From positions 1-64,000 of the IMG/VR virus record IMGVR_UViG_3300025896_001356: a stretch of 64,000 bases of DNA. One strand, given 5' to 3'. Source of the DNA: a virus. The notes beneath the pieces were generated by a model. It saw nothing but the letters and a program-made list of their open reading frames with translations, was not told where the DNA came from and did not search any database. The position numbers and the translations under genes were made by a program. Shown here piece after piece: positions 1,250 through 48,019 of this stretch (the first letter of the stretch is position 1; each line of letters opens with the position of its first letter).

Positions 1250-1279
1250 TAAGTAAAGTGAAAATTACACAAGTTGCCA

Positions 1280-2932: not shown

Positions 2933-2945
2933 AAACAGGAATACT

Positions 2946-4481
2946 ATGCCAAAAAAACATAACGAAACATTTGCCCAATATAAAATTAGAATGGTTGACT
3001 CAACAAGCGATAGCTTTTGTGCAGCCAAGTGGCTCAACGCCACAATCTGGTTAGGCAATGGACAAACAACCAGCTGCCACCATCCATTGGGACATCAGAT
3101 TGATGCAGCTGAATTAGAAACTAACCCATCTGCAATTCACAATACTCCGCATAAGAAACTTATGCGCAAGATGATGCAAGAAGGTACACGTCCACAAGAG
3201 TGCGAGTACTGCTGGAAGATTGAAGATATTGGCCGTGAAAACATCAGCGATCGTGTTTACAAGACAGCCGTGTTCAAAGACGAAGATGTTATTGCAGCGG
3301 CAACTACACACTGGCAACATGACACAATGCTAAAGACATTGGAAGTATCGTTTGATCGTACTTGTAATTTCTCTTGCTCATACTGCAACCCATCGTTCAG
3401 TACCAGCTGGGTAAAGGACATCAAGAAGTTTGGCCCATATCGCAACATCAATGGTGATTCGCGTAGCCACTTCATCAATGCTGCTGACCATGCAATTCCT
3501 ATTGCAGATGAAACTAATCCGTACATCAAAGCATTTTGGCGCTGGTGGGATGAAGGACTATCTGACAGCTTAGATGAGATTCGTATCACAGGCGGCGAGC
3601 CACTTATGGCCCCAGGTGTATGGAAGCTGATGGATTGGTTCAAGAACAATCAAGAACGTTCTACTCGTCCAGACGGCAGCGTATTACGTTATGCCATCAA
3701 CAGTAACCTAGTGCCCAAAGATGACCTAATGGACAAGTTCATTGAGATGAGTAAGTTTGTGCCGCACATGGAAGTATACACCAGTAATGAAAGCGTTGGC
3801 GCACACAGCGAATACATTCGCGATGGTATGGTCTACAGCAAGTGGAAAGAGAATCTACATCGCTTGCACACAGAAGGCAATATTAAAAAGACACACATGA
3901 TGATGACCATCAACAGTTTGTGTCTTGCAAGTATTGTTGAATTCATGGACGAGATCTTAGAGTTTAAGCGCGAACACAAGACTGTATATCCCACAATGAG
4001 CTTGAACATTTTACGATTCCCGTCGTTCCAATCATGTGCTATGTTGCCAACCAGCATTCGTCAACTATACAAGAACAAGTTACAGACATGGTTAGATGAT
4101 CAGATTGCCCGGGATGAAAAAGTTGACTTTATGGGCAATGGCAACATGTGGCCTATCCTAACTCCAATTGAACGTGAACAGGTACAGCGCCTGATTGACT
4201 ATCTTGATGTTATTAAAACTCCGCACAAGAACGTTAAGGACATGGCACAGCAACACTTGGACTTTAAAAACTTCTATACACAATACGATGTGCGCCGTGG
4301 TAAAGACTTCTGTGCCACATTCCCCGAAGAGTTTGTAAACTGGTACAACAGTATTGAAACACCAGTACCGACACGTGACGAAATCCTGGCTGGGACTTAT
4401 AGCGATGAAACCGGAGGCATTCCCGATCATCCACCAGAAGATCCAAGTAAGGAAGAATTCTTTAACCCGGATCTACAATGA
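2946..4481 (+). CDS. Radical SAM protein 2, subtype A
   Basis: 511 aa with an AGGA site before the ATG. It has the subtype A N-terminal Cys set CAAKW (C25), SCHHP (C44), CEYCW (C86, C89), followed by a KIED...SDR linker. Radical SAM ligands are CNFSCSYC (C140, C144, C147) and the SAM motif is ITGGEPL. It is a clear paralogue of radical SAM protein 1, sharing NPSAIHNTPHKK and RPQECEYCW. The C terminus is a charged, Pro-rich tail. Its last 4 bases overlap the next gene (ATGA). Confidence 0.88.
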   Translation: MPKKHNETFAQYKIRMVDSTSDSFCAAKWLNATIWLGNGQTTSCHHPLGHQIDAAELETNPSAIHNTPHKKLMRKMMQEGTRPQECEYCWKIEDIGRENISDRVYKTAVFKDEDVIAAATTHWQHDTMLKTLEVSFDRTCNFSCSYCNPSFSTSWVKDIKKFGPYRNINGDSRSHFINAADHAIPIADETNPYIKAFWRWWDEGLSDSLDEIRITGGEPLMAPGVWKLMDWFKNNQERSTRPDGSVLRYAINSNLVPKDDLMDKFIEMSKFVPHMEVYTSNESVGAHSEYIRDGMVYSKWKENLHRLHTEGNIKKTHMMMTINSLCLASIVEFMDEILEFKREHKTVYPTMSLNILRFPSFQSCAMLPTSIRQLYKNKLQTWLDDQIARDEKVDFMGNGNMWPILTPIEREQVQRLIDYLDVIKTPHKNVKDMAQQHLDFKNFYTQYDVRRGKDFCATFPEEFVNWYNSIETPVPTRDEILAGTYSDETGGIPDHPPEDPSKEEFFNPDLQ

Positions 4482-5869
4482 GCAAAATAATCCCAATCTG
4501 GGGTGATAATGCTCGTGTACATGCAGATAGTCCTAATAAGACATTCTGCATGGCGCCCTGGCGCCACACTTACATTAGCCCACAAAGCGAACGCAGAATG
4601 TGTTGCGCAAGCCGTGAGGAACACTCATTCCAAAAGCAATACATCGATGCTACCAACGACAAAGCCTACGGCGAAGTTTCTGACAGCAAGACTGCATTAG
4701 CAGATTACAATCCAGTTTCTTTAAAAGAACATTGGAACAGTGATTACATGAAAGACATTCGCGTTAAGCTGATGGCTGGCGAAACTATTCCACAGTGTGA
4801 CGTATGCAACAATAATTTGCTTATGGAAGGTAGTTACCGCGGCTGGTTCACAGGTGTGCTATTCCGTGATCAAATTGAAGAAGCTTTCGCTAAAACTGAC
4901 GAGACTGGTTACACCACAATGGAGCCAGTTAGCTTTGACTATCGCTTCAGTAACCTATGCAACTTCAAATGCCGTATGTGTGGCGAACAGTTAAGCAGTA
5001 GCTGGGAAGTCGAAAAGAAAGTACACAAGCTCTGGACTCCAAAAGATCAACCGTTTATGGTGCCTGAAATTAAGAGTGCAATGCAAGACTTTCAAACTAC
5101 AGTGGTAGAACCAGAGTTTAAGGATGCAGTTACTCGTGGTATCATTGAGGAAATGTATTGGGTAGGCGGCGAGCCATTGATGTACGATATCCATTGGTGG
5201 ACACTTGAAGAAATGCTTCGTAATGGCAGTGCTGACAAGTGCTATATGCGTTATAACAGCAATCTAAGTCGTGTGCAGTTTGGAAATAAAAATCTGTTTG
5301 ATTACCTTCCCAAGTACAAAGACTGGATGATGTGCGCAAGTATAGACGGCACAGGTGACATTGTGGAATACATTCGTACAGGTATCAACTGGAACGAATG
5401 GCTTGCTAACTTCAAAGAAGGTGTCGGCTTACCAGGCGGGCAAGATAAGATGAAGTTAGATCTTACTATTACTGCCCCGGGTATGTTTTCTCTACGGGAC
5501 TTGTTTGATCTGAGTTTAGAACTCAATGTAGAGATCATTACTAAGATTACGTTTGCATTTCATGCTGACATTATGTGGACGCCAATGAGCTGGCCGCGTC
5601 ATATCTTAAATCGTCATATTGAAGAATTGATTGCATACATGAGACCATTGGCAGGATCAAAGCAACAAAGTCTTATCACAGCATTAGAGTCAATGCGTGA
5701 TAGTAGACAAACACACAAAGAAGCGTATCCAGATACATTTGCTACAGCAGCTAAGAATGGTAAAGGATGGGTTACGCAGTTAGAAACAATCCGCAAGGAT
5801 GTTAAAACAACTATGTCTTCTATCTACTCTGCTGATCCAGAGTTGCAGGCCTGGTGGGATAACATATGA
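4478..5869 (+). CDS. Radical SAM protein 3, subtype B1
   Basis: 463 aa. The N-terminal set differs from subtype A: CMAPWRH (C24), a vicinal pair MCCAS (C42, C43), then CDVC (C107, C110). The radical SAM triad is CNFKCRMC (C161, C165, C168), followed by a VGGEPL motif. About 50 residues separate the auxiliary Cys set from the core. It most resembles the gene at 11420 (SNLCNFKCRMCG versus NNLCNLSCRTCG, then S-x-x-W). Coupled on both sides by ATGA overlaps, so it is probably made at a fixed ratio with its neighbours. Confidence 0.87.
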   Translation: MSKIIPIWGDNARVHADSPNKTFCMAPWRHTYISPQSERRMCCASREEHSFQKQYIDATNDKAYGEVSDSKTALADYNPVSLKEHWNSDYMKDIRVKLMAGETIPQCDVCNNNLLMEGSYRGWFTGVLFRDQIEEAFAKTDETGYTTMEPVSFDYRFSNLCNFKCRMCGEQLSSSWEVEKKVHKLWTPKDQPFMVPEIKSAMQDFQTTVVEPEFKDAVTRGIIEEMYWVGGEPLMYDIHWWTLEEMLRNGSADKCYMRYNSNLSRVQFGNKNLFDYLPKYKDWMMCASIDGTGDIVEYIRTGINWNEWLANFKEGVGLPGGQDKMKLDLTITAPGMFSLRDLFDLSLELNVEIITKITFAFHADIMWTPMSWPRHILNRHIEELIAYMRPLAGSKQQSLITALESMRDSRQTHKEAYPDTFATAAKNGKGWVTQLETIRKDVKTTMSSIYSADPELQAWWDNI

Positions 5870-7056
5870 GCAAGACATTATGTGTCTTGCCATGGATGCA
5901 CTTGGCAAGTCACCCCAATGGTGGCCAAAGCCTATGCTGCCGTAGCAATCATACAGATGCAGTCAGCTGGGCAATGAAACCTGGCACTACACTTCCTCAG
6001 ACATTTGAGGATGCTACATTGCTCGAGATGTCAAACAGCGAAACATTTGTAAGAGTGCGTGAGCAGATGATTGCTGGCGAACAGCCTGTAGAATGCGAAG
6101 GCTGCTGGAAGGATGAAGCAGCAGGTATTCCAAGCAAGCGAGAATATGAAAACCAACGTTGGCAACATATCATTCCCGAGCTTGAGCAAACAGCAGTACT
6201 AAGCAAACCAAACTATCGTTATGTGGAACTACGATTGGGCAATGTGTGCAACAATGCCTGCGTAACTTGCAATAGCTTTAGCAGCAGTAAATGGTATGCA
6301 GACGAAGTTAAGATCTCTAAGGACTTGCCTTGGTTTAAGTTGCGACCAATGGAAAACTTTAAGTGGCATGATCGCCCGGCGTTTTACGAAGAGCTTGCAA
6401 CATTAAGCAATGATGTAGAAGAAATATATATCAACGGTGGTGAGCCAACGCTTATCAAAGCACACTTTGGTTACCTTGAAAGTCTTATTAAGAGCGGTCA
6501 AGCTGCTAACGTACATCTTGTTTATAGTTTAAACATGATGGACATTCCTGACAAGCTAACAGCATTATGGGAACACTTTAAACGTGTCACTGTAAATTGT
6601 AGCGTGGACGATATTGGTGAACGCAATTTTTATATTCGTTGGCCAAGCGTATGGGAAGATACAGTTCGTAGTATAAGGAAATTAGATTCAATACACACAG
6701 TCGAGTGGCACGTGACGCAAACTGTAAGCATCTATAATATCTTTAGTGTAGATGAACTTGACGCATGGCTACGTAATAACTTTGACAAGTCAACTACACA
6801 TAATTATGTACTGTATCCCGAACATCTAAGTTTAGCTGCAATACCCAACAATGTCAAAGATCAATTGCGATGGAAGTATCAAAATTCGTTTAACGAAGAT
6901 AAACGCAACGAGCTGATGGCAAAGTTAGACATGCCGTATCGTCCAGAGCTAACTATACAAGCGAAGGAGTTTGTTGAAGCTCTTGATCGCAGCCGTAATT
7001 TAGATTATAAAAATTACGTACCTGAATTAGGAAAGATATTAAATGGAACAAGTTGA
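5866..7056 (+). CDS. Radical SAM protein 4, subtype B2
   Basis: 396 aa. N-terminal Cys set: CVLPWMH (C6), SLCCRS (C24, C25), CEGC (C77, C80), then WKDEAAGIPSKR. Radical SAM ligands are CNNACVTC (C128, C132, C135), and INGGEP is the SAM motif. Closest in layout to the gene at 10175, which has CWVDEKNGFKSKR at the same place. The 3' end overlaps the methyltransferase start by 14 bases. No substrate can be inferred. Confidence 0.86.
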   Translation: MSKTLCVLPWMHLASHPNGGQSLCCRSNHTDAVSWAMKPGTTLPQTFEDATLLEMSNSETFVRVREQMIAGEQPVECEGCWKDEAAGIPSKREYENQRWQHIIPELEQTAVLSKPNYRYVELRLGNVCNNACVTCNSFSSSKWYADEVKISKDLPWFKLRPMENFKWHDRPAFYEELATLSNDVEEIYINGGEPTLIKAHFGYLESLIKSGQAANVHLVYSLNMMDIPDKLTALWEHFKRVTVNCSVDDIGERNFYIRWPSVWEDTVRSIRKLDSIHTVEWHVTQTVSIYNIFSVDELDAWLRNNFDKSTTHNYVLYPEHLSLAAIPNNVKDQLRWKYQNSFNEDKRNELMAKLDMPYRPELTIQAKEFVEALDRSRNLDYKNYVPELGKILNGTS

Positions 7057-7654
7057 TAAAAATGATTACAACCAGGAGCCAATTTCGTGGCAACAGTATC
7101 TTGATGAGATTGGACCACTCTTCAGATTCTGTACAAATGCAACAGTATTAGAAATTGGGCCATATTATGGACATCATACTAAACTCATTGAGACTTTTGG
7201 TCCCGAAGCAATTACGTTAGTTGAAAACAATGCAGATGCAGTTAACGTATTACGTCAAAGATTCGAACATGAGATTATACATGCTGACATAAACGATTTT
7301 CTTAAAGTAAATCGACATTTTGATGTTGTAGTTTGTTGCGGAGTATTGTATCATTTGCATTCGCCTGTGCATCTATTGGAGTTAATTGTTAACATGTCAA
7401 CCCCAAAAATTGTAATATTAGAATCAGTTAATGTGTCAACTATTGAAATGACTGTTGAGCCTGACAATAACCCGGGTATGCGATACATTGACGAAAGTTG
7501 GAAATCAGCGAAGTGTAATATGGTGTTGCCATTTAATACAATTATTAGCATTATGAAAACACTTGGGTACAAACTTGCAGACCACCATATGCAAGGTTAT
7601 CCTAACATTATATCTAAACAAAACGTACAATCAGCAGTTTTTATACAACAATGA
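7043..7654 (+). CDS. Class I SAM-dependent methyltransferase
   Basis: 203 aa with a Rossmann-fold methyltransferase layout: motif I VLEIGPYYGHHT near residues 35-46, an acidic residue after the next strand (LVENN), HADINDF, then VVCCGVLYHLHSP near 110. The last resembles the post-motif region of small-molecule and CmoB-like methyltransferases. It splits the radical SAM array into two blocks of four and overlaps genes on both sides, so it very likely acts in the same pathway. Acceptor unknown. Confidence 0.82.
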   Translation: MEQVDKNDYNQEPISWQQYLDEIGPLFRFCTNATVLEIGPYYGHHTKLIETFGPEAITLVENNADAVNVLRQRFEHEIIHADINDFLKVNRHFDVVVCCGVLYHLHSPVHLLELIVNMSTPKIVILESVNVSTIEMTVEPDNNPGMRYIDESWKSAKCNMVLPFNTIISIMKTLGYKLADHHMQGYPNIISKQNVQSAVFIQQ

Positions 7655-8940
7655 CAATTACACAAATACCAATTCAGATTGATCATAGCTTCTGTGCAGC
7701 AAAGTGGCTTATGGTCACCATGCACTTTGGCATGGGCGAGAATCACTCTTGTTATCATCCTCCTATCCATCGTTGGGATTTAGATGATGTCAAAGCTAAC
7801 CCTGGTGCATTGCACAACAGCAAGCACAAGATTAAACAGCGTGAAATGATGCTGACTGGCATCCGTCCCAAGGAATGCAACTACTGCTGGAACATGGAAG
7901 ACATTGATTCCACAGCAGTAAGTGATCGTAAACGTTTTACCAACGAAACCTGGGCAATTGAACGTCGCCAAGAGATATTATCTGCGCCTGCTGACGCCTA
8001 CATTGGTCCAGCACACTTAGAAATATCATTTGCCAACGTATGCAACTTTGCCTGCGCCTACTGTAGTCCAGGTCAAAGTAGTACATGGGAAACGGAAATC
8101 CGTAAACACGGTTCATACCCAATTGAAGATGCGACTGTGCATAAGGATAAAATGCACGATATGATTCCTGAAGATAATAATCCGTACATTGATGCATTTT
8201 GGGAATGGTTGCCGTCGATCTATTCTGGCCTACGTTATCTACGTATTACAGGTGGCGAACCTTTGGCTACTCGTAACTTTATGAAGTTGTTGGACTACGT
8301 TGCAGAGAATCATAACCCTGATTTAACGTTAGTGGTAAACACTAACTTATGTGTGCCTGAAAAGAACTTAGATTTATTCTTTACCAAAGCAACTGCATTA
8401 CTTGAAGCCAAGACTATTAAAGGGCTTGAAGTTTATACCAGTATGGATACATGGGGACCACAAGCCGAGTACATTCGTGACGGATTAGATATTGAGAAGT
8501 GGGAAGCAACTGTTCGTAAGGTCAGTACCACGTTCGGAGTTCCGATTCGAGTCATGGTCACATTTGGATTGCTTAGTGTGTTTAACTTCCAAACCTTTGT
8601 TGAAAAGGTCATAGAAATGCGCTCACAAGGCATAGATATCATGTTTAATTGCTCCAGACTTGTAGATCCTAAGCAGTTTGACCTTAGAATATTGCCTGAC
8701 GAATGCGATCACTACTTTGATGCAGTAAATAATTTTATTGTGGATAATAATGACATTGTTAAGGTAGAAACTGAAACATGGGCAATGGTTTATCAGTTCT
8801 GGAAAGCCAGACACACTACAATGACAGTGATCGAACGTGATCATCGACGGGATCAGTTTGCCAAGTTCACAGCCGAATACGACAAACGTAGAACATTGAA
8901 CTTCAGCGCAACATTTCCGGAGTTGGCAGGATGGATTTAA
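7651..8940 (+). CDS. Radical SAM protein 5, subtype A
   Basis: 429 aa. Subtype A N-terminal set CAAKW (C15), SCYHPP (C34), CNYCW (C76, C79), the shared NPGALHNSKHK stretch, then SDRKR. Radical SAM triad CNFACAYC (C131, C135, C138) followed by SPGQSSTW, and ITGGEPL. Very similar in layout to proteins 1 and 2 but shorter at the C terminus. It starts by ATGA overlap with the methyltransferase. Confidence 0.88.
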   Translation: MTITQIPIQIDHSFCAAKWLMVTMHFGMGENHSCYHPPIHRWDLDDVKANPGALHNSKHKIKQREMMLTGIRPKECNYCWNMEDIDSTAVSDRKRFTNETWAIERRQEILSAPADAYIGPAHLEISFANVCNFACAYCSPGQSSTWETEIRKHGSYPIEDATVHKDKMHDMIPEDNNPYIDAFWEWLPSIYSGLRYLRITGGEPLATRNFMKLLDYVAENHNPDLTLVVNTNLCVPEKNLDLFFTKATALLEAKTIKGLEVYTSMDTWGPQAEYIRDGLDIEKWEATVRKVSTTFGVPIRVMVTFGLLSVFNFQTFVEKVIEMRSQGIDIMFNCSRLVDPKQFDLRILPDECDHYFDAVNNFIVDNNDIVKVETETWAMVYQFWKARHTTMTVIERDHRRDQFAKFTAEYDKRRTLNFSATFPELAGWI

Positions 8941-10178
8941 TTCATAATATGAATCAAGCACTTGAAGAATTAAAAAAATCAACAAGTCAAACTTTGTGTT
9001 TAGCAAAGTTTCACGAAGCTACTATCTGGCTATATAGTGGCCGCATTGCTAGTTGCCATCATACTCCTTTAGTACCATTGGGTGATAGTGTACTCACATT
9101 CTTTAATCCAACTGAAAAACGTAAGCAACAAGAATCAATGCTAGCTGGCAACAAGCCGTCTGAATGTTCATACTGCTGGAAATTAGAAGACAAGAATCTT
9201 ATCAGTGATAGATATAAAAAATCAATCAGCTTCAAATCTACACTGACTGCTGTTGAGTATTTGGATCCTACTTATAATTTTAAACCTAAGGCATTAGAAT
9301 TATCATTTCAGAATCTTTGCAATTTGGCCTGTAGCTATTGCAGTGCAGAATATAGTTCTAAGTGGGCAGATGATCTAACAAAAAACGGTAATTATACTAA
9401 GATTACAACTGACAAACGCTTGCATTATCAACGCGGAGTAGACAATCATACCCCAGTTGATATGACTTTATTTTGGGATTGGTTTAATACAGTCGCTGAT
9501 GGAATTGAATCGCTTCGTATTACTGGCGGCGAACCATTGCTCCATGAAGAAACATTTAAAATGCTTGATATCATGCAGGAAATCAATCCAAACATTGAGT
9601 TTGTAGTACATACAAATCTTTGTCAAAAACCTGTAATTATTAGTCGATTTGTTGATAAAATATCAAAGTTCAATAATGTGCGTGTAAACATAAGCAATGA
9701 AAGTGCAGGCGACGTAGCTGAATTTATACGTGATGGAATGAATTACAATGAATGGTTAGCGAATCTTAAAGTACTATCAAATAGCAACGCCAACCTAAGT
9801 GTCAGTACTACTATCACTGCATTAGCATTAACAAGTCTAGATCAACTATACACTGATGTCATTGCGATTCGCAATGCGGCTAACCAAAAAGTATACATTT
9901 CGATTAACTTTGCTACATATCCAGAATTCCAATCAATTAGTTGTCTGACTCAGGATGAATTGCAGTTTTATTATAATAAGTACATCGTGTTCTTTGATAA
10001 CATCAAGGATGATCTATTAGAGATTGAACACAGCCACATAATAAGACTATTAAAAATGATGCAATCGGATGAAGATGTAAATCAGCCAGTGCTTCGGAAA
10101 GATTTGAATTCTTTCTTTGAACAGTACTCTGTCAGACGTAATAAGGTTAACCTAATAGGAACAATTGGATTGAAATGA
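8931..10178 (+). CDS. Radical SAM protein 6, subtype A
   Basis: 415 aa from ATG 8931, which lies inside the end of the previous gene; ATG 8949 is an alternative. Cys set CLAKF (C23), SCHHTP (C42), CSYCW (C79, C82), then ISDRYKK. The triad is CNLACSYC (C130, C134, C137), with ITGGEPLL as the SAM motif. It lacks the NPxAxHN stretch in its exact form (FFNPTEKRKQQ), so it is the most divergent subtype A copy. The next gene starts by ATGA overlap. Confidence 0.87.
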   Translation: MDLIHNMNQALEELKKSTSQTLCLAKFHEATIWLYSGRIASCHHTPLVPLGDSVLTFFNPTEKRKQQESMLAGNKPSECSYCWKLEDKNLISDRYKKSISFKSTLTAVEYLDPTYNFKPKALELSFQNLCNLACSYCSAEYSSKWADDLTKNGNYTKITTDKRLHYQRGVDNHTPVDMTLFWDWFNTVADGIESLRITGGEPLLHEETFKMLDIMQEINPNIEFVVHTNLCQKPVIISRFVDKISKFNNVRVNISNESAGDVAEFIRDGMNYNEWLANLKVLSNSNANLSVSTTITALALTSLDQLYTDVIAIRNAANQKVYISINFATYPEFQSISCLTQDELQFYYNKYIVFFDNIKDDLLEIEHSHIIRLLKMMQSDEDVNQPVLRKDLNSFFEQYSVRRNKVNLIGTIGLK

Positions 10179-11383
10179 ATAATATACCAGTTAACAAGAT
10201 ATGCAGTATGCCTTGGGTTGGGTTTAGCAATGATCCCGACGGTAAAGTGCGGCCGTGCTGTTTGTACAAAGGTCATATATCAGAGAATGATAAACCAATG
10301 TATGTGCAGCAGCACAGTGTAGATGACATTTTTAAAAGCAAATACATGCGTGACTTGCGCGATGATTTTAGAAATGGTAATCAGCCTTCGGCCTGTTCCA
10401 CCTGCTGGGTAGATGAAAAAAATGGATTTAAAAGCAAACGATTGATTGCCAATGAAATCTGGAAACATCATCAAATTGACTATATGGAAGAACCAGTTCT
10501 TCCAGTTGAATTTCAGATGATTATAAACAATTCCTGCAATCTAAAATGTCGGTCTTGCACGCCTAGCCATAGTACCCAATGGCAAATTGAAAATGTTAAA
10601 ATTAATGGAAGTTCAGGTTACAATATGCCGCATGGCCAAGCAGGCGATGACGATAGTGTATTATGGACAAAGCGTCACGAATGGTATGCAAGTGTGCAAC
10701 GATTGGAAATAGTAGGCGGCGAACCTTTTTATGTTAAACAATGGCACCAAATATTTGAAGAACTAATCGAATTAGGTTATGCAAAGAATATCGTACTGAA
10801 TCTGAGTTCGAATTGTACATTGTTTTTTGGTGGCTTAGTTGAAAGGATGACTCAAAATTTCAAATCTGTTGGAATTGGATTAAGTATAGATGGCACTGGC
10901 TCCGAATACGAATATCTGCGTCATCCAGGTAATTGGGACACTGTCTACGCTAACATGAAAAAGTATCATGCCTTAATGGAAAAGTACCCCAATTTACATG
11001 TACAAGTGAGTTATACAATCGGCTGGTTAAATGCACTGGATCTAACCATTATGCACGAACTAGTACGAACAGACTTTCCTAAGTTTAGGATATGGAATAA
11101 CATCATTCATTTTCCCGAGCATATGGCAATTTGTTCAGCGTCAGACGATATAAAACAGGAAATAATGGACAATTGGGACGCATATAAATGGGATCAACAT
11201 TATACATCAATCATTGACGGCGTCAAAACTTTTATGAATAGTAAATCAATCAGCACACAACAATTTAAAAGTTATGTTGATATTCTGCTCAGCAGAGATG
11301 CCATCCGAAACGAAAACTTATATGAATCCTTTCCGAAACTTGTTAAATTTTTACCAACACAATCTGATAACTCTGACTCATAA
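10175..11383 (+). CDS. Radical SAM protein 7, subtype B2
   Basis: 402 aa. N-terminal set CSMPWVG (C10), PCC (C28, C29), CSTC (C74, C77), then WVDEKNGFKSKR as in protein 4. Core triad CNLKCRSC (C121, C125, C128), SAM motif VGGEPF. The SIDGTGSEYEYLRHPGNW stretch is a typical mid-barrel segment of radical SAM enzymes with SPASM/twitch extensions. A 36-base gap follows that holds a 12-codon micro-ORF. Confidence 0.87.
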   Translation: MNNIPVNKICSMPWVGFSNDPDGKVRPCCLYKGHISENDKPMYVQQHSVDDIFKSKYMRDLRDDFRNGNQPSACSTCWVDEKNGFKSKRLIANEIWKHHQIDYMEEPVLPVEFQMIINNSCNLKCRSCTPSHSTQWQIENVKINGSSGYNMPHGQAGDDDSVLWTKRHEWYASVQRLEIVGGEPFYVKQWHQIFEELIELGYAKNIVLNLSSNCTLFFGGLVERMTQNFKSVGIGLSIDGTGSEYEYLRHPGNWDTVYANMKKYHALMEKYPNLHVQVSYTIGWLNALDLTIMHELVRTDFPKFRIWNNIIHFPEHMAICSASDDIKQEIMDNWDAYKWDQHYTSIIDGVKTFMNSKSISTQQFKSYVDILLSRDAIRNENLYESFPKLVKFLPTQSDNSDS

Positions 11384-11384
11384 T

Positions 11385-11423
11385 ATGCAAGTACATAAAT
11401 TAAAACAACAAGGCATATTATGA
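11385..11423 (+). other. 12-codon micro-ORF coupled to the next radical SAM gene
   Basis: An ATG just after the stop of radical SAM protein 7 opens a 12-residue frame (MQVHKLKQQGIL). Its TGA overlaps the ATG of the next gene (ATGA). It could be a translational coupler or chance; there is no ribosome site directly upstream. Reported because a second micro-ORF sits on the other side of the same gene. Confidence 0.2.
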
Positions 11424-12757
11424 GCGAGCAGTCATTTAATCCAACTGATCTTGCAGCAAGCAGCGATACATTTTGTATCTTGCCCTGGATGCACCAGTAC
11501 ATTGGCACACGCGGAGATATTAAACCATGCTGTGCGTTTGAGCATACGTTAGAAATTGGAAATTTAAAAAAAGAAACATTGGCTGATACTTGGAACAATG
11601 ACAAAACCAAAAATGTTCGTCTCGAATTGCTCAATGGAAAAATTCCCAAAGGTTGCGAGATCTGCGACCGCAAAGGAAAAGGTATGGCATTGGCCGACGC
11701 AGCCAACAGTTGGTTTTATGACACCAATGCAGAATCTGGTGTCAAATTTGATATTATGCAACAGCTAGCATCAACTCAGTCTGACGGTACAGTGGCCGAC
11801 CACAAGTTATTTTATATGGATACACGTTTTAATAATCTTTGTAATTTATCGTGCCGTACATGCGGTCCGCACTTTAGTACAACTTGGGCAGCCGAACGTA
11901 AAAAGATTGCCATCTTGACAAATATGCCTTTGCGAGATGACGGAATTGATACAGGTTTGCAATTTGCTGGAAAAACAGTAAATGATGCTTACGAACAATT
12001 GTTGCCACATTTTCCCAATCTCACACGCATTTATTTCGCAGGCGGCGAACCAATGATGCAAGTGGAGCACTACAACACGCTTAAAGAATTAATAAGGACT
12101 GGCCGCACTGACGTTGAGCTTTGGTACAATGCAAATTTCAGTAGATTGACCTTAGGTAAAGATGATGCCATTGAACTTTGGAAAAATTTTAAATCTGTCA
12201 GAATGATGGCTAGCCTGGATGGGTCATATTTAAAAGGGGAGTATTGGCGTAATGGCTTACATTGGAGCGATGCAATACGTCATCGCGAGAAAATGCTAGC
12301 TGAGGCGCCACATGTTGAATTTTATGTTTCCTTTGTGGTAAGTTGGCCAAATATTTTTAATCTATTAGAATTTCACAAAGAATGGTTCGAATTAGGTTAT
12401 ATTAGTAGTGTTGAACACTTTAGTCTGAATCTATTAGAAGGGCCAGCAATGTATAGTTTGCAAAATTTGCCCGAATGGAAAAAAATAAAAATTAAAGCAG
12501 CAATAACCAACCACATTGTATGGATTAATAGCAATTCATTAAATGGCAATTCTACTATTGCATTTGCACTAAACAGATTCGTCGAAAGTATGATGCAGCC
12601 AGCAGTTGATCTGCAGAAAAGTCTGACTAAGTTCGCTATAGAAACCAAAATGCTGGATAACGTACGAGATCAGAATTTTTGGGAAGTATATCCTGAGCAT
12701 TTAGATCTTAAAGAATATATGCAACAAGAATTTAACATAGTATGGGAAAATCTATAA
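11420..12757 (+). CDS. Radical SAM protein 8, subtype B1
   Basis: 445 aa. N-terminal set CILPWMH (C19), PCC (C37, C38), CEIC (C79, C82). The core triad CNLSCRTC (C141, C145, C148) is preceded by YMDTRFNNL, very like the FDYRFSNL of protein 3. SAM motif AGGEP. The spacing between auxiliary and core Cys also matches protein 3, so these two form a pair. AAGG about 7 nt before the ATG may serve as ribosome site. The stop and the following micro-ORF overlap as TAATG. Confidence 0.87.
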   Translation: MSEQSFNPTDLAASSDTFCILPWMHQYIGTRGDIKPCCAFEHTLEIGNLKKETLADTWNNDKTKNVRLELLNGKIPKGCEICDRKGKGMALADAANSWFYDTNAESGVKFDIMQQLASTQSDGTVADHKLFYMDTRFNNLCNLSCRTCGPHFSTTWAAERKKIAILTNMPLRDDGIDTGLQFAGKTVNDAYEQLLPHFPNLTRIYFAGGEPMMQVEHYNTLKELIRTGRTDVELWYNANFSRLTLGKDDAIELWKNFKSVRMMASLDGSYLKGEYWRNGLHWSDAIRHREKMLAEAPHVEFYVSFVVSWPNIFNLLEFHKEWFELGYISSVEHFSLNLLEGPAMYSLQNLPEWKKIKIKAAITNHIVWINSNSLNGNSTIAFALNRFVESMMQPAVDLQKSLTKFAIETKMLDNVRDQNFWEVYPEHLDLKEYMQQEFNIVWENL

Positions 12758-12810
12758 TGGGTGAAGCAATAAAATGTGCGTTCCTCATTGTAAATGCAGC
12801 TTTTGAATGA
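12757..12810 (+). CDS. 17-residue micro-ORF between radical SAM and SGNH genes
   Basis: The frame MGEAIKCAFLIVNAAFE starts by TAATG overlap with radical SAM gene 8 and ends by ATGA overlap with the SGNH gene. It exactly bridges what would otherwise be a 49-base gap. Such two-sided coupling is what one expects of a translated frame. It has one Cys and a hydrophobic middle. It could be a coupler, a regulatory peptide or, more speculatively, a peptide substrate for the radical SAM enzymes. Only its position supports it. Confidence 0.35.
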   Translation: MGEAIKCAFLIVNAAFE

Positions 12811-13763
12811 GTGAATATATAAAATACTTGAGTTTTTTAAAAAATCCAAAGTCTTTGGAGGAACTCTGGCTGGTCCAACACTGGCTTGAAATTGCACCAG
12901 CCAGTTCTAGCAATAATATGCAGAAATTTTTTATCAGGCCAGCAAATCAGCATGAAATTGATAACTCGGCTCAAGCCTATGCCAATGGTCGTACTACAAA
13001 ATCGTCGCCTCCGGAATATAAGGTTGATCGTTACGGATTTAGAATAGCGTCAGGTTTCGCAGGATTAGACACAATTGATGATTCAGACCACTTGCATATT
13101 GGATTTTTTGGTTGCTCTTTCACATATGGTATCGGATTAGAGTCTGAAGAAATTTGGATAGAAGGGGTAGCCAGTGCATTATCTGTACAACTCAATAGGC
13201 CTGTAACAATTTATAATTTTGGCGAAGGCGGTGCCGGAGTACAGAGAATAGCAGATATATTCCGCCAGGTAACACAGTTTAGGAAATTAGACTATGCATT
13301 TTTTTTACTTCCAGATCATCAACGTTACCAGTATCCGGTTATTGTCACAGACCATCAACCAACCACAAGCCCAGTTAAACTTATAAATGTAGTTAATGGA
13401 TTTAATCCAACTCGCATCAGCAATGAACAACAGTACCAGTTAATAACTCGAAATAAATCCATGTCCGAACTCGACGATGTCAACCGACTGATCAATGAAT
13501 TGCAGATCATTGAACTTATTGCCAAGGTAAACAACGTCAAAATATTCTATTCAGCCTGGCGAGCTCCTACTTACGAAATATTGTCAACACACATTGATAA
13601 TAGTGCAATGTTACCATTTTTTGGTTCTTCGCCAGGCACTAGCAGAGACGGAAACTGGACAGATTTTGCTGCCGACGGCAGTCATCCTGGGCCAAAATTA
13701 AATCAACATTGGGTAAATATAGTACAGCAATATTTCATTGAACACAGAAAAGGATTAGATTAA
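12807..13763 (+). CDS. SGNH/GDSL-type hydrolase or acyltransferase 1
   Basis: 318 aa. After a roughly 90-residue N-terminal extension, block I of the SGNH fold appears as FFGCSFTYGIG (nucleophile S104). A block II-like NFGEGGAG follows, and block V is DGSHPG near residues 290-295 (Asp-His of the triad). SGNH enzymes add or remove acyl groups, often on sugars. The gene sits between radical SAM genes 8 and 9 and overlaps the latter by TAATG, which ties it to the same pathway. No signal peptide, so cytoplasmic. Confidence 0.8.
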   Translation: MSEYIKYLSFLKNPKSLEELWLVQHWLEIAPASSSNNMQKFFIRPANQHEIDNSAQAYANGRTTKSSPPEYKVDRYGFRIASGFAGLDTIDDSDHLHIGFFGCSFTYGIGLESEEIWIEGVASALSVQLNRPVTIYNFGEGGAGVQRIADIFRQVTQFRKLDYAFFLLPDHQRYQYPVIVTDHQPTTSPVKLINVVNGFNPTRISNEQQYQLITRNKSMSELDDVNRLINELQIIELIAKVNNVKIFYSAWRAPTYEILSTHIDNSAMLPFFGSSPGTSRDGNWTDFAADGSHPGPKLNQHWVNIVQQYFIEHRKGLD

Positions 13764-14968
13764 TGAGCCAGATGTACGGTAAAGTAACCCGGTTACACAT
13801 AGAATTATCAAGCAGGTGCAATGCCAGCTGCCCGTGTTGCAGCAGAAATTTTTGCGGCGGCCCAGTTGTGCCTGACCTAGATCTCACTGAGCTATCGCTT
13901 GCTGATATAAAACAAATGATTCCAAATGAGTTAGCGGCACAATTACATGCTATTAATTTTTGTGGCAACATAGGCGACCCGGGTATGGCAACAGATTTAA
14001 TAGAAATATTAGAGCATTTTCGAGACCAGTCGCCAAACATTATACTGCAAGTTAGAACCAATGGCGGCATGCGTTCAGCAGAATTTTGGACCAAATTGGG
14101 TAACTTTTTTAAAAATCACCAAGCCAACAATATGGATCCAATTCAGGCCGATGGCGGCCATTTGTTTGGTAGATCAAACGTCGTTTTCAGTGTCGACGGA
14201 CTTGAAGAAACTAATCATATATACCGCCGCGGGGTAATTTGGGAAAAATTAATCAGAAACATGCAAGCATATAGCGATACTGGTGCAACTGCAACTTGGG
14301 AATGGTTATTGTTTGATCATAATAAACACCAAATTGACGAAGCACATGCATTGGCCAAGAAATTAAATTTTGATCTTTTATTCAAGAATCCAATGGGGTT
14401 CACTGAACATGATGGTATTTTCAAACCAATACCAGTGTATAGCAAAGCTGGCAAGTACGAGTATAGTATTTGGCCAAATGGCTACTCCGGTGAAAAAATA
14501 GTCGGCGCAGATAGTTCGTTTGATTTTGTCAATCATTACATTACTCAAAAACAAAATAAAAACATACCCGTTATTAACGAATTTAGTAAAAGTTTAGAAA
14601 ACAATACAATAACATGTCGGTCAACTGCTAAATTGGATCAGGGTGAAGTGTACATTTCTGCAGGTGGCTATATGTTACCTTGCTGCTATCTAGGAAGTGT
14701 GTTTGGTCAGAATCAATCATCATATTCACGCTACCAGTTCAATTCACTGATGCAAGACTATGGATTAGAGAAATTCAATCTGAGAACCCGGCCAATGACG
14801 GATATTTTAAAAGGGCCAGAATTTTCCAAATTTTTCTTAGATGGTTGGTCAGCAGATACAATCAAAAACGGTAAATTATTATATTGTATAGAAACATGCG
14901 GACAATCAGAATTAAATTCTATTGATAAACTATATCCTAATAAAATTATCAGTAAAGATTTAACATGA
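13763..14968 (+). CDS. Radical SAM protein 9 with C-terminal SPASM-like Cys set
   Basis: 401 aa. Unlike the other eight it begins almost directly with the radical SAM core: LHIELSSRCNASCPCC (C19, C23, C26). Its additional Cys lie at the C terminus: TCRSTAK, then GGYMLPCCYLG, then LLYCIETCG. This is the usual place for SPASM/twitch auxiliary clusters, as in peptide- and sugar-modifying radical SAM enzymes. The canonical GGEP is replaced by CGNIGDPG. It is therefore a different lineage added to the cluster. Confidence 0.85.
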   Translation: MSQMYGKVTRLHIELSSRCNASCPCCSRNFCGGPVVPDLDLTELSLADIKQMIPNELAAQLHAINFCGNIGDPGMATDLIEILEHFRDQSPNIILQVRTNGGMRSAEFWTKLGNFFKNHQANNMDPIQADGGHLFGRSNVVFSVDGLEETNHIYRRGVIWEKLIRNMQAYSDTGATATWEWLLFDHNKHQIDEAHALAKKLNFDLLFKNPMGFTEHDGIFKPIPVYSKAGKYEYSIWPNGYSGEKIVGADSSFDFVNHYITQKQNKNIPVINEFSKSLENNTITCRSTAKLDQGEVYISAGGYMLPCCYLGSVFGQNQSSYSRYQFNSLMQDYGLEKFNLRTRPMTDILKGPEFSKFFLDGWSADTIKNGKLLYCIETCGQSELNSIDKLYPNKIISKDLT

Positions 14969-15014
14969 AAATATTTGGCAATACACAGCTATATCAACTT
15001 ACCAGGAGCATTAC

Positions 15015-15116
15015 ATGTTTAAATGGATAAAAAATTTATATTACAAGATCAAAACAGAATTGCGCTATCGGAAGCGCATCAAAGAAATGAAAAAACGTGA
15101 TCCGTTCATCTACTAA
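15015..15116 (+). CDS. 33-residue very basic protein
   Basis: AGGAG 7 nt upstream of ATG 15015 gives a good start. The product MFKWIKNLYYKIK...MKKRDPFIY is strongly basic and amphipathic. From memory, peptides with the ending KRDPFIY recur in marine T4-like phages, but no function is known to me. It lies between radical SAM gene 9 and the second SGNH gene. Confidence 0.6.
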   Translation: MFKWIKNLYYKIKTELRYRKRIKEMKKRDPFIY

Positions 15117-15123
15117 GTAGAAC

Positions 15124-15828
15124 ATGAAAATTGGAATATTTGGTGATAGCTTTGCAGTATACTACCCAGAAAAGGCGCCCAGAACGGCCTGGGCTACTGT
15201 CTTAGAAGATAAATTTAAATGGGATGTTACTAACTACGCCTGGGGGGCAACAAGTTTATTTTGGACTTATACGCAATTATTAAATAATATAAACGACGTT
15301 GATATTGTCATAATGAGTATTACTCAGCAAGGTAGATTATACAGTCATGATCCAAAAGCGTGTACTGGTCTGTCTAATTATGGATCAGTTAATGCTCGGC
15401 TTGCTGGATTGAGTAGTAGTCATGCAGATTATGAAATTCTCAATGCCGCACTGCAATATTTTGTGCATTTGTCCAATGATGATTTTAATAGGTATGTACA
15501 TGTCAAAATCATTGACGACATAAAGAAACTCTGCAACTTGCAGGGTAAACGATTGATTTTAATTCCCGGATTTGATGAAGATATAAACTCTCAAGATATA
15601 TTTCAGTCTGCACTAATAAATGTGTCGGTCACTGAGTGCTGGGCGCATTTTAAGCAGCCGTACGTCATTGAAGCGCCTACACGTAATTGTCATATGACAG
15701 ATGCAAACAATAGTATACTAGCTCAACTGTTGGATCAAATATTACGTGGCAATCGAACAGAGGTCAAACTCACTGATTTTAATTTTGAAAAAATATCAGA
15801 TTTATCTTCCCAATGGATTTTACCATAA
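15124..15828 (+). CDS. SGNH/GDSL-like protein 2
   Basis: 234 aa. Block I is IFGDSFAVYY (S9) and a block II-like glycine is in YAWGATS. The expected block V Asp-x-x-His seems degenerate (NCHMTDANN, with Asn before Cys-His), so catalysis is uncertain. No signal peptide. The stop codon forms TAATG with the carbamoyltransferase start, a strong coupling. It may hydrolyse or transfer acyl groups on the product of the neighbouring enzymes, or simply bind a substrate. Confidence 0.7.
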   Translation: MKIGIFGDSFAVYYPEKAPRTAWATVLEDKFKWDVTNYAWGATSLFWTYTQLLNNINDVDIVIMSITQQGRLYSHDPKACTGLSNYGSVNARLAGLSSSHADYEILNAALQYFVHLSNDDFNRYVHVKIIDDIKKLCNLQGKRLILIPGFDEDINSQDIFQSALINVSVTECWAHFKQPYVIEAPTRNCHMTDANNSILAQLLDQILRGNRTEVKLTDFNFEKISDLSSQWILP

Positions 15829-17285
15829 TGATATTAGGTATTACAGCACAAAATCATGACGCCAGTTTAGCACTAATAGATGGTGATCGTATTGTATGGG
15901 CAGCACACGCAGAACGCTACAGCAGAGTTAAAAACGATCCGCTATTAAATGCAGCCATGCTGGCAGATATGCGATGCTACGGCGAGCCAACTGAATTAGT
16001 ATGGTTTGAAAAGCCCGTACAAAAGGATTTACGACGATTGATTTCCGGACAACGTCCTTGGCATGTTAGTCCTAAAGATCAATTACGTGCAGTGGGATTA
16101 GATCACTTGCCTATCGACTATGTTGGCCATCATCAAAGCCATGCTGCCGCAGGATACTATACAAGTGGGTTCAAAGACGCTGCAATCTTAGTAGTAGATG
16201 CAATCGGCGAATGGGACACAGTTAGTATTTGGCATGCTGAAGGTGCCGATATGAAGCGCAAGTGGTCAAAGAAGTATCCTAACAGCGTAGGATTGTTTTA
16301 CACAGCAATGACACAGTGGTTAGGATTAAAGCCCAATGAAGAAGAATACATCCTAATGGGCATGGCTGCTTATGGAAAGCCTCGACACGCAGAAGAACTA
16401 TTAGAAACGTTCTTTACCAAGTGGGCGCCACCCGACTTTAAGCTAAAGCACAATCTACATCGTGGTTGCGCTTGGTGGACTCCTAAAGACTCTACTGCAA
16501 CCAAGTTTGATATTGCTGCCAGTGTACAGTACATAATTGAAATGTATTTGACAGAGACAATTGATTGGATGTCTGGAGAAATTGATTCAGATAATTTAGT
16601 CTTTATGGGCGGCGTTGCATTAAATTGTGTGGCAAATGCATTAATTGCACGAGAAAACTATTTTAATAATTTCTGGATTATGCCTAATCCCGGTGACAGC
16701 GGCAGTGCAATTGGTGCAGTTGCAGCCCATACTCGACGGCATTTAAAATGGGAAACCATTTACCTAGGCACTGATATCAAACAAGATGTTGATGTCAAGT
16801 CAATTGTTAAAGAACTCAAAAAGGGCAATGTGGTAGCAGTAGCAAATGGTCGTGCTGAGTTTGGCCCACGTTCATTAGGTAATCGTAGTTTACTGTGCGA
16901 TCCACGTGGTGCAGATGCCAAGCCCCGCATGAATACTATTAAAAAGCGTGAACAATTTCGTCCATTTGCGCCGGCTGTGTTAGCAGAACACGCAGACACA
17001 TATTTTGACATGCCTGTTGCAGAAAGCCCTTATATGCAGTTTGTTGCAGAATGTAGAACGCCAGACACATTGCCGGGTATTTGTCACGTAGATAACTCTA
17101 GTAGAGTGCAAACAGTTACCGAGCAAGATAATCCTGTGTTTCGTAGTATATTAGAAGCATGGGAAACTGCAACAGGTTGCCCTATATTAATGAATACCAG
17201 TTTAAACATTCGTGGCGAACCGCTAGTAAATACCTGGGCAGACGCACTGCGCTTTCAAACTTTACACAAGGTAAATGTATATTAA
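15828..17285 (+). CDS. NodU/TobZ/CmcH-family carbamoyltransferase
   Basis: 485 aa from ATG 15828, chosen because MILGITAQNHDASLALIDGD is the family's N terminus and the start overlaps the upstream stop. Motifs in order: HHQSHAAAGYYTSGF (Kae1/YgjD-like metal site), DAIGEWDT, MGGVALNCVAN, GRAEFGPRSLGNRSLL, RPFAPAVL, NTSLNIRGEPLV. These enzymes make carbamoyl adenylate from carbamoyl phosphate and ATP and pass the carbamoyl group to a hydroxyl of a sugar or antibiotic. Full length and intact. It supports a small-molecule or glycan-modifying role for the cluster. Confidence 0.9.
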   Translation: MILGITAQNHDASLALIDGDRIVWAAHAERYSRVKNDPLLNAAMLADMRCYGEPTELVWFEKPVQKDLRRLISGQRPWHVSPKDQLRAVGLDHLPIDYVGHHQSHAAAGYYTSGFKDAAILVVDAIGEWDTVSIWHAEGADMKRKWSKKYPNSVGLFYTAMTQWLGLKPNEEEYILMGMAAYGKPRHAEELLETFFTKWAPPDFKLKHNLHRGCAWWTPKDSTATKFDIAASVQYIIEMYLTETIDWMSGEIDSDNLVFMGGVALNCVANALIARENYFNNFWIMPNPGDSGSAIGAVAAHTRRHLKWETIYLGTDIKQDVDVKSIVKELKKGNVVAVANGRAEFGPRSLGNRSLLCDPRGADAKPRMNTIKKREQFRPFAPAVLAEHADTYFDMPVAESPYMQFVAECRTPDTLPGICHVDNSSRVQTVTEQDNPVFRSILEAWETATGCPILMNTSLNIRGEPLVNTWADALRFQTLHKVNVY

Positions 17286-29169: not shown

Positions 29170-29808
29170 ATGATAGCATACACAGGTCCCGAGAACGATA
29201 AGCGTAAGATTGAAATTAAGTTCCCAGACGGAAAGAAACGTATCGGAGTGATGCTAAGTGGTGGTGCAGATTCTGCTATCTTACTTTATTTGCTGGCGTT
29301 GGAACGTAAGATGGAATGCAGTGATCAAGAACTAATTCTGTTTACTGTGGCGCGGGCTGATGGCGCCTGGAATTACGTCAAACCAATTGTAGATAAAATC
29401 AATACTATGCTAGGCATTATCCTGCCAGATCCAATACAAGTTGGCGATCCAACGCTACACCATAGCAAGCAAGGTCGCAGTGGAGAGATTGAGGCGCGAG
29501 CACAGCATGGCATCGAACATTTTTTCTATGGTAGTCAGCAGCACCCACCAAAGGAGATGATTGAGTTGCCTGGCATCTATCCTAATCGACCCGACTCTGT
29601 TGAATTACCCGGCACTACTATTCCATTTGCATTAGTCGATAAGCGGCATACACTTGGGTTATATGAAGTCTTTCAAGTATGGTCTTTGATCGAGCTTACT
29701 CATTCATGTACAGCACAAACCGTAGGCCGTTGTATGGAATGTTATAACTGTAAGGAACGTGAATGGGCGTTAGACGAATTAGGTATCAGTGACCCCGGGG
29801 CGATGTAA
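29170..29808 (+). CDS. QueC-like PP-loop ATPase (7-cyano-7-deazaguanine synthase-like)
   Basis: 212 aa. The PP-loop VMLSGGADSAILLYLL binds ATP. The C-terminal CTAQTVGRCMECYNCKERE resembles the zinc-binding Cys cluster of QueC. QueC turns carboxy-deazaguanine into preQ0. With the QueD-like gene at 46717 this hints at 7-deazaguanine chemistry, used by some phages to modify DNA. A different PP-loop reaction cannot be excluded. Convergent with the next gene, overlapping it by 23 nt. Confidence 0.65.
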   Translation: MIAYTGPENDKRKIEIKFPDGKKRIGVMLSGGADSAILLYLLALERKMECSDQELILFTVARADGAWNYVKPIVDKINTMLGIILPDPIQVGDPTLHHSKQGRSGEIEARAQHGIEHFFYGSQQHPPKEMIELPGIYPNRPDSVELPGTTIPFALVDKRHTLGLYEVFQVWSLIELTHSCTAQTVGRCMECYNCKEREWALDELGISDPGAM

Positions 29809-33427: not shown

Positions 33428-34000
33428 ATGATAATTAAATGTATGTTAACATATCTTACTTTGGCCACTTCAAATCTTATCCGCCACCATATTCCAGTAT
33501 ATCCAGATTGGCCAAAAACTGGAGTCAAATATCTTAACACAGTCGAGCTTTGCCAAAACCCAAGTGCATTTGATCTAAGTGTGCAATGGTTTAAAGCAGT
33601 CGCCGAAACATGTAATGCACAAGATATTTTTGCTGCAGATGCTCGTGGGTTCATTTGGGGTGCACCAACTGCAAACCATTGTAAACTACCGTTGCATGTA
33701 GTAAGAAAACCAGGAAAACTTCCGGGAAATGTGTGGAGCCAGACTTACGAACTCGAGTATGGTACAGATACATTGGAGTTGCTGTCATCTACTCCAGTAG
33801 GCAATCGTCAGATACTAATTGTAGATGATGTACTAGCAACTGGAGGCACAGCAGATGCAATTTGCAAATTGTTGCATAACAATTTAAATATTCCGTACAC
33901 GTCAATGAGCGTGGCTGTATTAGTCAATCTAACATTTTTATCTGGTCAACAAATGTTAGAAGAAAAAGGTATTCAAGTATTTGGATTATTAAATGAGTGA
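33428..34000 (+). CDS. apt: Adenine phosphoribosyltransferase-like enzyme
   Basis: 190 aa. The PRPP-binding motif ILIVDDVLATGGTADA is near residue 130, ADARGFIWGAPTA matches the APRT ADxRG signature, and VRKPGKLPG matches the flexible hood loop. APRT joins adenine to PRPP giving AMP and pyrophosphate. It overlaps the MTA/SAH nucleosidase-like gene, which releases adenine, so the two form a salvage pair. The weak TATACT 5 nt upstream may be a promoter. Confidence 0.85.
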   Translation: MIIKCMLTYLTLATSNLIRHHIPVYPDWPKTGVKYLNTVELCQNPSAFDLSVQWFKAVAETCNAQDIFAADARGFIWGAPTANHCKLPLHVVRKPGKLPGNVWSQTYELEYGTDTLELLSSTPVGNRQILIVDDVLATGGTADAICKLLHNNLNIPYTSMSVAVLVNLTFLSGQQMLEEKGIQVFGLLNE

Positions 34001-34544
34001 TATAATTGTATTTGCACTAGAAGCTGAAGCTCCTAACCTGTTTAAAGAATATGCAAATGTTTACTGCATTGGTGTAGGTAAAGTAAATTCTGCAATCCAA
34101 ACTGTACGGCTATGTAATACCTATCAACCTGATCGTATTATTAATTTAGGCACAGCAGGCGGCATTAGATTAGGCACAGGCATACATCGTATCAACACAG
34201 TCTGGCAACACGATATAAACTTAATGGCACTTGGCATGCGCCCAGGTATACATTTTAATGATCCCGAAAGCATGATAATTATGCCTGGTCCAGGAAAGAC
34301 ATGTGCGTCTGGTGATATCTTTATTATAGAACCCGAGAAGCTTCGCGTAGAATGTGACGTGGTTGACATGGAAGCATACAGTGTGGCCAAGGTAGCAAAC
34401 CGCCTGGGCCTTGGTATTGAAATATGGAAATACATCAGTGACCCTGCAGATGCCAGCGCAGGCAAAACTTGGCAAGAACAAGTAGCAGCAGGTGAACCGT
34501 TTTATAGAAAAGTGTTGGAACAACTTGGAGCAAAATTAAAATGA
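33993..34544 (+). CDS. MTA/SAH nucleosidase-like enzyme (Pfs/MTAN family)
   Basis: 183 aa, shorter than the roughly 230 aa of bacterial MTAN. Key residues fit: E12 in FALEAEAP, NLGTAGG (51-57), E127 in VDMEAYSVAKVA and D150 in ISDPADASAGKTW. These match the catalytic Glu, ribose-binding Glu and catalytic Asp of E. coli MTAN. The family cleaves S-adenosylhomocysteine, methylthioadenosine and 5'-deoxyadenosine to adenine plus a sugar. The last is the by-product of radical SAM enzymes. It overlaps the genes on both sides. Confidence 0.8.
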   Translation: MSDIIVFALEAEAPNLFKEYANVYCIGVGKVNSAIQTVRLCNTYQPDRIINLGTAGGIRLGTGIHRINTVWQHDINLMALGMRPGIHFNDPESMIIMPGPGKTCASGDIFIIEPEKLRVECDVVDMEAYSVAKVANRLGLGIEIWKYISDPADASAGKTWQEQVAAGEPFYRKVLEQLGAKLK

Positions 34545-47680: not shown

Positions 47681-48019
47681 ATGGATAATCAAGTAAACAT
47701 TACAGATGCAGCATACGCCAAGGTTAAGGAGATTATCTCCGAAGATGCCAAATTGGAAGGTGTAGCATTGCGTATTTTTGTGCAAGGTGGCGGATGTTCG
47801 GGCATGGAATATGGCTTTACATTTGATGCAGATGTGAACGACGACGACTTTAATTTTGAGCAAAATGGTATCAAGGTCTCAATTGATTCGATGAGCATGA
47901 CATATCTAACAAATGCAGTCATTGACTACAAAGAAGATTTAAACGGTTCAAGATTTTCAATTGAAAATCCAAATGCACAAACTACATGCGGTTGCGGTAG
48001 TTCTTTTAGTCCGAGCTAA
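47681..48019 (+). CDS. A-type Fe-S cluster carrier, ErpA/IscA-like
   Basis: 112 aa. The three cluster ligands are present: Cys in [16 protein letters not shown] and the pair in TTCGCGSSF at the C terminus. [14 protein letters not shown] is the usual N terminus. ErpA/IscA proteins carry and insert [2Fe-2S]/[4Fe-4S] clusters into enzymes. With nine radical SAM enzymes in the same window, each needing one or more [4Fe-4S] clusters, its role as their cluster donor is an attractive inference. Confidence 0.9.

What the first reader, a model, noticed from the sequence alone, without database searches (positions are those of the whole stretch)
33428..34544. Adenine salvage pair (nucleosidase + APRT) that fits radical SAM waste
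The overlapping genes encode an APRT and an MTA/SAH nucleosidase-like enzyme with catalytic E12, E127 and D150 in place. Bacterial MTAN also cleaves 5'-deoxyadenosine, the by-product of radical SAM enzymes and an inhibitor of them, and SAH from the methyltransferase. APRT returns the adenine to AMP. Finding both in a phage with nine radical SAM genes suggests a deliberate support pathway.
Basis: partly seen in the sequence, partly recalled or inferred. Interest (0 to 1): 0.8.

Follow-up and report, generated by a model that had tools for sequence, protein, structure and literature searches.

The report
Phage adenine-salvage gene pair
A lake phage carries two neighbouring genes that probably cut adenine off the waste products of S-adenosylmethionine and recycle it to AMP; the same pair is common in plankton bacteria and in unrelated phages, and in a survey it did not travel with the radical SAM genes it was thought to serve.

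Summary
Window 33428-34000 is a true adenine phosphoribosyltransferase (APRT). The overlapping 33993-34544 is a short MTAN-fold nucleosidase: AlphaFold2 pLDDT 92, every top PDB match is MTAN or its futalosine-hydrolase variant, and E12/E127/D150 are invariant in 67 relatives. Both are under purifying selection, and the genome carries nine CX3CX2C radical SAM genes. APRT-nucleosidase is an ordinary bacterial gene pair; in 22 such bacterial genomes no canonical MTAN passed its cut-off. Phages carry the pair in several contexts, including beside ribonucleotide reductase in a complete genome with one radical SAM gene. The nucleosidase occurs in 5/46 phage contigs picked for these radical SAM enzymes and 4/35 picked by a neutral gene. 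Close relatives with 9-11 radical SAM genes, and a 316-kb contig with 14, show none. Nucleosidase and APRT are not a fixed unit. Best reading: a general, old phage auxiliary module that clears SAM by-products (SAH, MTA, 5'-deoxyadenosine) and salvages adenine. Dedication to radical SAM is not supported. A phage MTAN with radical SAM genes was already reported from Lake Baikal.

The parts
33428..34000 (+). Adenine phosphoribosyltransferase (190 aa as the ORF is called; probable start at about 33443-33446)
   Evidence: NF002636 146 bits over its cut-off of 125; PDB APRTs at E 7e-32; PRPP loop intact; dN/dS about 0.1
33993..34544 (+). Short (183 aa) MTAN-fold purine nucleosidase, predicted to release adenine from 5'-substituted adenosines; E12, E127, D150 catalytic
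   Evidence: PF01048; NF004168 best NCBIfam model; AlphaFold2 pLDDT 92; all top VIA-align matches MTAN or its futalosine-hydrolase variant, Z up to 21.4; invariant residues
34541..35143 (+). Peptidase_G2-like (intramolecular chaperone) gene, overlapping the nucleosidase stop by 4 bases; conserved next gene in the lineage, not metabolic
   Evidence: PF11962 64 bits; synteny in L003-L014
1274..14968 (+). Cluster of nine radical SAM genes (eight NF033640 N-terminal-twitch type) plus a methyltransferase (7043-7654) and a GDSL-like protein; 18 kb from the pair

Best explanation
An old phage auxiliary-metabolism module. The nucleosidase hydrolyses SAM-derived 5'-substituted adenosines (SAH, MTA, 5'-deoxyadenosine) to adenine plus the sugar. 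APRT then joins adenine to PRPP to give AMP for the nucleotide pool. The effect would be relief of product inhibition of SAM-dependent enzymes in general (phage methyltransferase, phage and host radical SAM enzymes) plus purine salvage. It is general housekeeping, not tied to the radical SAM cluster. Shown here: gene identity, fold, catalytic residues, selection, distribution. Inferred: substrates and physiological role.
For: Fold and residues: model pLDDT 92, best match H. pylori MTAN Z 21.4, 180 aligned residues, 2.1 A; E12/E127/D150 invariant in 67. APRT passes an equivalog cut-off. The pair is directly adjacent in 62 of 80 viral loci and about 33 of 80 bacterial loci (SAR116, Litorivicinus, SAR202, Verrucomicrobia; divergent in SAR11), which argues that the nucleosidase releases adenine. 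In 22 bacterial genomes chosen mostly for carrying the pair, no canonical MTAN exceeds the curated cut-off and the short nucleosidase is the match, so it probably does the MTAN job there. The phage sequences form a group with Verrucomicrobia, apart from Proteobacteria and Chloroflexi, and include phages with and without radical SAM clusters. Purifying selection.
Against: The nucleosidase is below the cut-off of every curated nucleosidase equivalog, so its substrate is not fixed by homology; the 5'-pocket Phe is Trp160 throughout this family. 16 viral loci with enough upstream DNA have no adjacent APRT, so salvage to AMP is not always encoded by the phage. No assay exists.
Confidence: 0.6

Rival explanations
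1. Dedicated radical SAM support: the nucleosidase is kept to remove 5'-deoxyadenosine made by the phage's own radical SAM cluster, APRT recycling the adenine.
For: All long window-lineage contigs but one carry 5-12 radical SAM genes. In a second lineage (L033, L034, L037, L052, L053, L058, L063, L082) radical SAM genes lie about 1.4-2.3 kb from the nucleosidase, convergent, and several of these have no adjacent APRT. MTAN-type enzymes are known to act on 5'-deoxyadenosine (PMC10986504).
Against: 5/46 against 4/35 (odds ratio 0.95, p = 1). Within the neutral sample 1/9 radical-SAM-rich against 3/26 others. Close relatives G077 and G080 (96 kb, 9 and 11 radical SAM genes), and G079 (244 kb, 8) and G082 (316 kb, 14), have no nucleosidase or any PF01048 protein. 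The pair or the nucleosidase occurs in long phage contigs without a radical SAM cluster (G024 96 kb 0; G040 52 kb 0; G051 54 kb 0; G100 209 kb 0; complete C48C1 1). The pair is 18 kb from the cluster and exists as a pair in bacteria.
Confidence: 0.13
2. Nucleotide supply: the nucleosidase strips adenine from ordinary host nucleosides (deoxyadenosine, adenosine) or MTA and APRT feeds AMP, then dATP, for phage DNA.
For: In C48C1 and several relatives (L070, L078) the pair directly follows ribonucleotide reductase genes.
Against: MTAN-type hydrolases are generally poor on 5'-hydroxyl nucleosides (established knowledge, not tested). No ribonucleotide reductase was seen beside the pair in the window lineage.
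Confidence: 0.15
3. Removal of SAH specifically, to keep phage or host methyltransferases running (DNA or other methylation).
For: One methyltransferase at 7043-7654; Lake Baikal phage VP_139 carries MTAN with MetK and three methyltransferases and was read this way (PMC7678222).
Against: Trp160 replaces the usual Phe of the 5' pocket, which could narrow it; nucleosidase phages were not systematically checked for methyltransferases.
Confidence: 0.12

Closest known systems
NF004168 / PRK05634 short bacterial 'nucleosidase' (PNP_UDP_1 superfamily) next to apt in plankton bacteria
   Same: Length, fold, catalytic residues, adjacency to APRT
   Different: Phage-encoded; 106 bits against a cut-off of 129
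MTA/SAH nucleosidase (MtnN/Pfs, EC 3.2.2.9), e.g. H. pylori and E. coli
   Same: Fold Z 21, 180 residues; E12, E174 and D197 equivalents
   Different: About 50 residues shorter, 22-26% identity, below MTAN model cut-offs, Trp for the 5'-pocket Phe
Lake Baikal methylotroph phage VP_139: MTAN + radical SAM + methyltransferases + MetK (PMC7678222)
   Same: Freshwater phage with a nucleosidase and radical SAM genes, read as SAM-cycle support
   Different: The passages found do not mention APRT or 5'-deoxyadenosine; its radical SAM proteins were read as PQQ biosynthesis
Phage C48C1 (OQ984149, complete, 156 kb, Kyanoviridae)
   Same: APRT immediately followed by the nucleosidase, 40-42% identical
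   Different: Next to ribonucleotide reductase, one radical SAM gene, no cluster

Membership tests
Adenine phosphoribosyltransferase | Passes a curated equivalog cut-off | tested here: met
   NF002636 146.3 bits, cut-off 125; the narrower TIGR01090 model is below its own cut-off (135.7/185.85)
Adenine phosphoribosyltransferase | PRPP-binding loop and type I PRTase fold by sequence | tested here: met
   IVDDVLATGGTAD intact; aligned end to end with APRT structures
Adenine phosphoribosyltransferase | Adenine + PRPP to AMP activity | not testable with these tools
   needs an assay
MTA/SAH nucleosidase (MTAN) | PNP-superfamily MTAN fold | tested here: met
   All top VIA matches MTAN or its futalosine-hydrolase variant, Z 17.6-21.4
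MTA/SAH nucleosidase (MTAN) | Catalytic Glu12, Glu174, Asp197 equivalents | tested here: met
   E12, E127, D150 in the window, invariant in 67 relatives
MTA/SAH nucleosidase (MTAN) | Passes curated MTAN equivalog models | tested here: not met
   NF004079 58.5/169, TIGR01704 38.3/73.8; so it is not filed as MTAN proper but as a short MTAN-like nucleosidase
MTA/SAH nucleosidase (MTAN) | Hydrolysis of MTA, SAH, 5'-deoxyadenosine | not testable with these tools
   needs an assay
NF004168 short nucleosidase | Passes the curated cut-off of 129 bits | tested here: not met
   106 bits; best model nonetheless, residues 4-167 of 183. None of the phage records tested passes either
Dedicated radical SAM by-product disposal system | Enriched in phages with radical SAM clusters | tested here: not met
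   5/46 against 4/35; 1/9 against 3/26
Dedicated radical SAM by-product disposal system | Physically linked to the radical SAM genes | tested here: inconclusive
   18 kb away in the window; about 1.4-2.3 kb in one other phage lineage

The most novel reading that the evidence does not exclude
The phage keeps the nucleosidase (with or without APRT) mainly to destroy 5'-deoxyadenosine from its own radical SAM cluster, together with a phage-encoded Fe-S carrier: a phage-borne radical SAM maintenance kit that is optional rather than universal.
Probability: 0.13. Interest if true: 0.6.

Novelty: new member of a known kind. Interest (0 to 1): 0.3.

Why it matters
If it cleaves 5'-deoxyadenosine it would show that phages manage the waste of SAM enzymes during infection. 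As it stands it documents that a short MTAN-like nucleosidase plus APRT is a recurrent phage auxiliary module (285 relatives of the nucleosidase among 322 pattern-matched stretches of viral contigs in one scan), and that co-residence with radical SAM genes in one genome is not evidence of a linked pathway.

Tried and rejected
Acinetobacter phage MD-2021a hits: the record carries ileS, ribF and ssu genes, so it looks like a bacterial contig and was left out. Window-lineage contigs alone suggested near-perfect co-occurrence, but they are one syntenic lineage. Collapsing nucleosidase-positive records of 40 kb or more to 13 clusters gives 5/13 radical-SAM-rich (3 or more) against 9/28 neutral, p = 0.73. 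With 2 or more radical SAM genes it is 8/13 against 10/28, p = 0.18. A different PNP-superfamily enzyme replacing the nucleosidase in radical SAM phages was tested and not found (0/50). PHROGs gave no family for either gene. Plasmid hits were few and divergent, and several records have chromosome size. Paper searches found only one phage MTAN report.

Full report
WHAT IS THERE. Window 33428-34000 (+) and 33993-34544 (+) overlap by 8 bases. The first passes an APRT equivalog model (NF002636, 146 bits, cut-off 125) and aligns end to end with solved APRTs. The second is a PNP_UDP_1 superfamily protein whose best curated model is NF004168, 'nucleosidase', a short bacterial family (106 bits, cut-off 129). 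It is about 50 residues shorter than canonical MTAN and fails the MTAN equivalog cut-offs, so I do not file it as MTAN proper.

FOLD AND ACTIVE SITE. AlphaFold2 on 67 relatives gives pLDDT 92. The second-look PDB comparison lists only MTANs (including the H. pylori enzyme deposited as futalosine hydrolase), Z up to 21.4 over 180 residues. E12, E127 and D150 are invariant in all 67. PDB entries in the same list describe E. coli Glu12Gln and Asp197Asn as mutants studied with ligands. The Phe of the 'SFDQF' stretch in solved MTANs is Trp160 in the whole family; its role in the 5' pocket is from general knowledge. dN/dS of about 0.08-0.2 shows a maintained protein.

SURROUNDINGS. The window is part of a 77,160-base virus record with T4-like clamp loader, PhoH, ClpA-like and tail-fibre genes. 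The order phrog_2319 - APRT - nucleosidase - Peptidase_G2, followed in most by TauD and HNH genes, is conserved in viral contigs L003-L014. The nucleosidase is 80-86% identical in contigs where APRT is mostly only 58-62% identical, and no APRT is adjacent in G002/L004. The two genes therefore do not evolve as a tight unit, and the nucleosidase is the more constrained. The nine radical SAM genes (CX3CX2C in all) lie 18 kb upstream.

DISTRIBUTION. An alignment-based scan found 285 viral relatives, of which 80 were kept. APRT is adjacent in 62. In 80 bacterial relatives about 33 have APRT directly adjacent: Verrucomicrobia, SAR116, Litorivicinus, SAR202, and divergently SAR11. In 22 of these genomes nothing exceeds the canonical MTAN cut-off, so the short nucleosidase probably serves as their MTAN. 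The tree groups all phage sequences with Verrucomicrobia, apart from Proteobacteria and Chloroflexi. In phages the pair occurs in several contexts: the window lineage, a lineage with convergent radical SAM genes about 1.4-2.3 kb away, and T4-like phages with ribonucleotide reductase just upstream, including complete phage C48C1.

CO-OCCURRENCE TEST. Nucleosidase-positive window relatives are radical-SAM-rich, but they are one lineage. A neutral sample of 35 contigs (32 kb or more) was chosen by clamp loader: nucleosidase in 4; 1 of 9 radical-SAM-rich (3 or more) and 3 of 26 others. A sample of 46 contigs (35 kb or more) was chosen by similarity to the window's radical SAM proteins: nucleosidase in 5. 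An earlier 13 gave 0. Fisher p = 1 for 5/46 against 4/35. Fifty radical-SAM-bearing records of these samples that lack the nucleosidase also lack every PF01048 protein, including close relatives with 9-11 radical SAM genes and contigs of 244 and 316 kb. Conversely, nucleosidase phages without a cluster exist: G024, G040, G051, G100, C48C1. Caveats: most records may be fragments, the samples are small, and many of the 46 may carry a single radical SAM gene.

LITERATURE. E. coli Pfs/MtnN acts on SAH, MTA and 5'-deoxyadenosine, and these inhibit SAM enzymes (PMC10986504). Lake Baikal phage VP_139 was reported with MTAN, MetK, radical SAM proteins and methyltransferases as a SAM-cycle module (PMC7678222). 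The basic idea of phage SAM-cycle support is therefore published; APRT and 5'-deoxyadenosine are not mentioned in the passages found there.

VERDICT. A real, functional-looking adenine-releasing and adenine-salvaging pair; most likely general clearance of SAM by-products. Dedication to the radical SAM cluster is not supported by the distribution but is not excluded as a benefit in individual phages.

Noticed in passing
window 47681-48019 (+): ErpA/IscA-like A-type Fe-S carrier (NCBIfam PRK13623 ErpA, E 9e-45, in the genome-wide scan; GGGCSG and CGCG cysteines kept). A phage-borne Fe-S loader in a genome with nine radical SAM genes may be the better candidate for radical SAM support.
   Followed up: partly
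L025:5104-5742: In a contig with a 77%-identical nucleosidase, a class II aldolase (PF00596, 84.8 bits) lies upstream of the nucleosidase and no adjacent APRT is found; class II aldolases process 5-deoxyribose in the DHAP shunt.
   Followed up: partly
L033, L034, L037, L052, L053, L058, L063, L082: One phage lineage has radical SAM genes convergent with and about 1.4-2.3 kb downstream of the nucleosidase, often with a small gene between (SegE GIY-YIG nucleases are frequent among the neighbours); several have a DUF6614 gene upstream.
   Followed up: partly
window 1274-17285: Nine radical SAM genes (eight N-terminal-twitch type), a methyltransferase, a GDSL-like protein and a NodU-type carbamoyltransferase in one run: looks like a biosynthetic or surface-modification cluster; product unknown.
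   Followed up: no
window 29170-29808: QueC-like protein (PF06508 24 bits, phrog_1550) conserved upstream of the pair in most members of the lineage.
   Followed up: no
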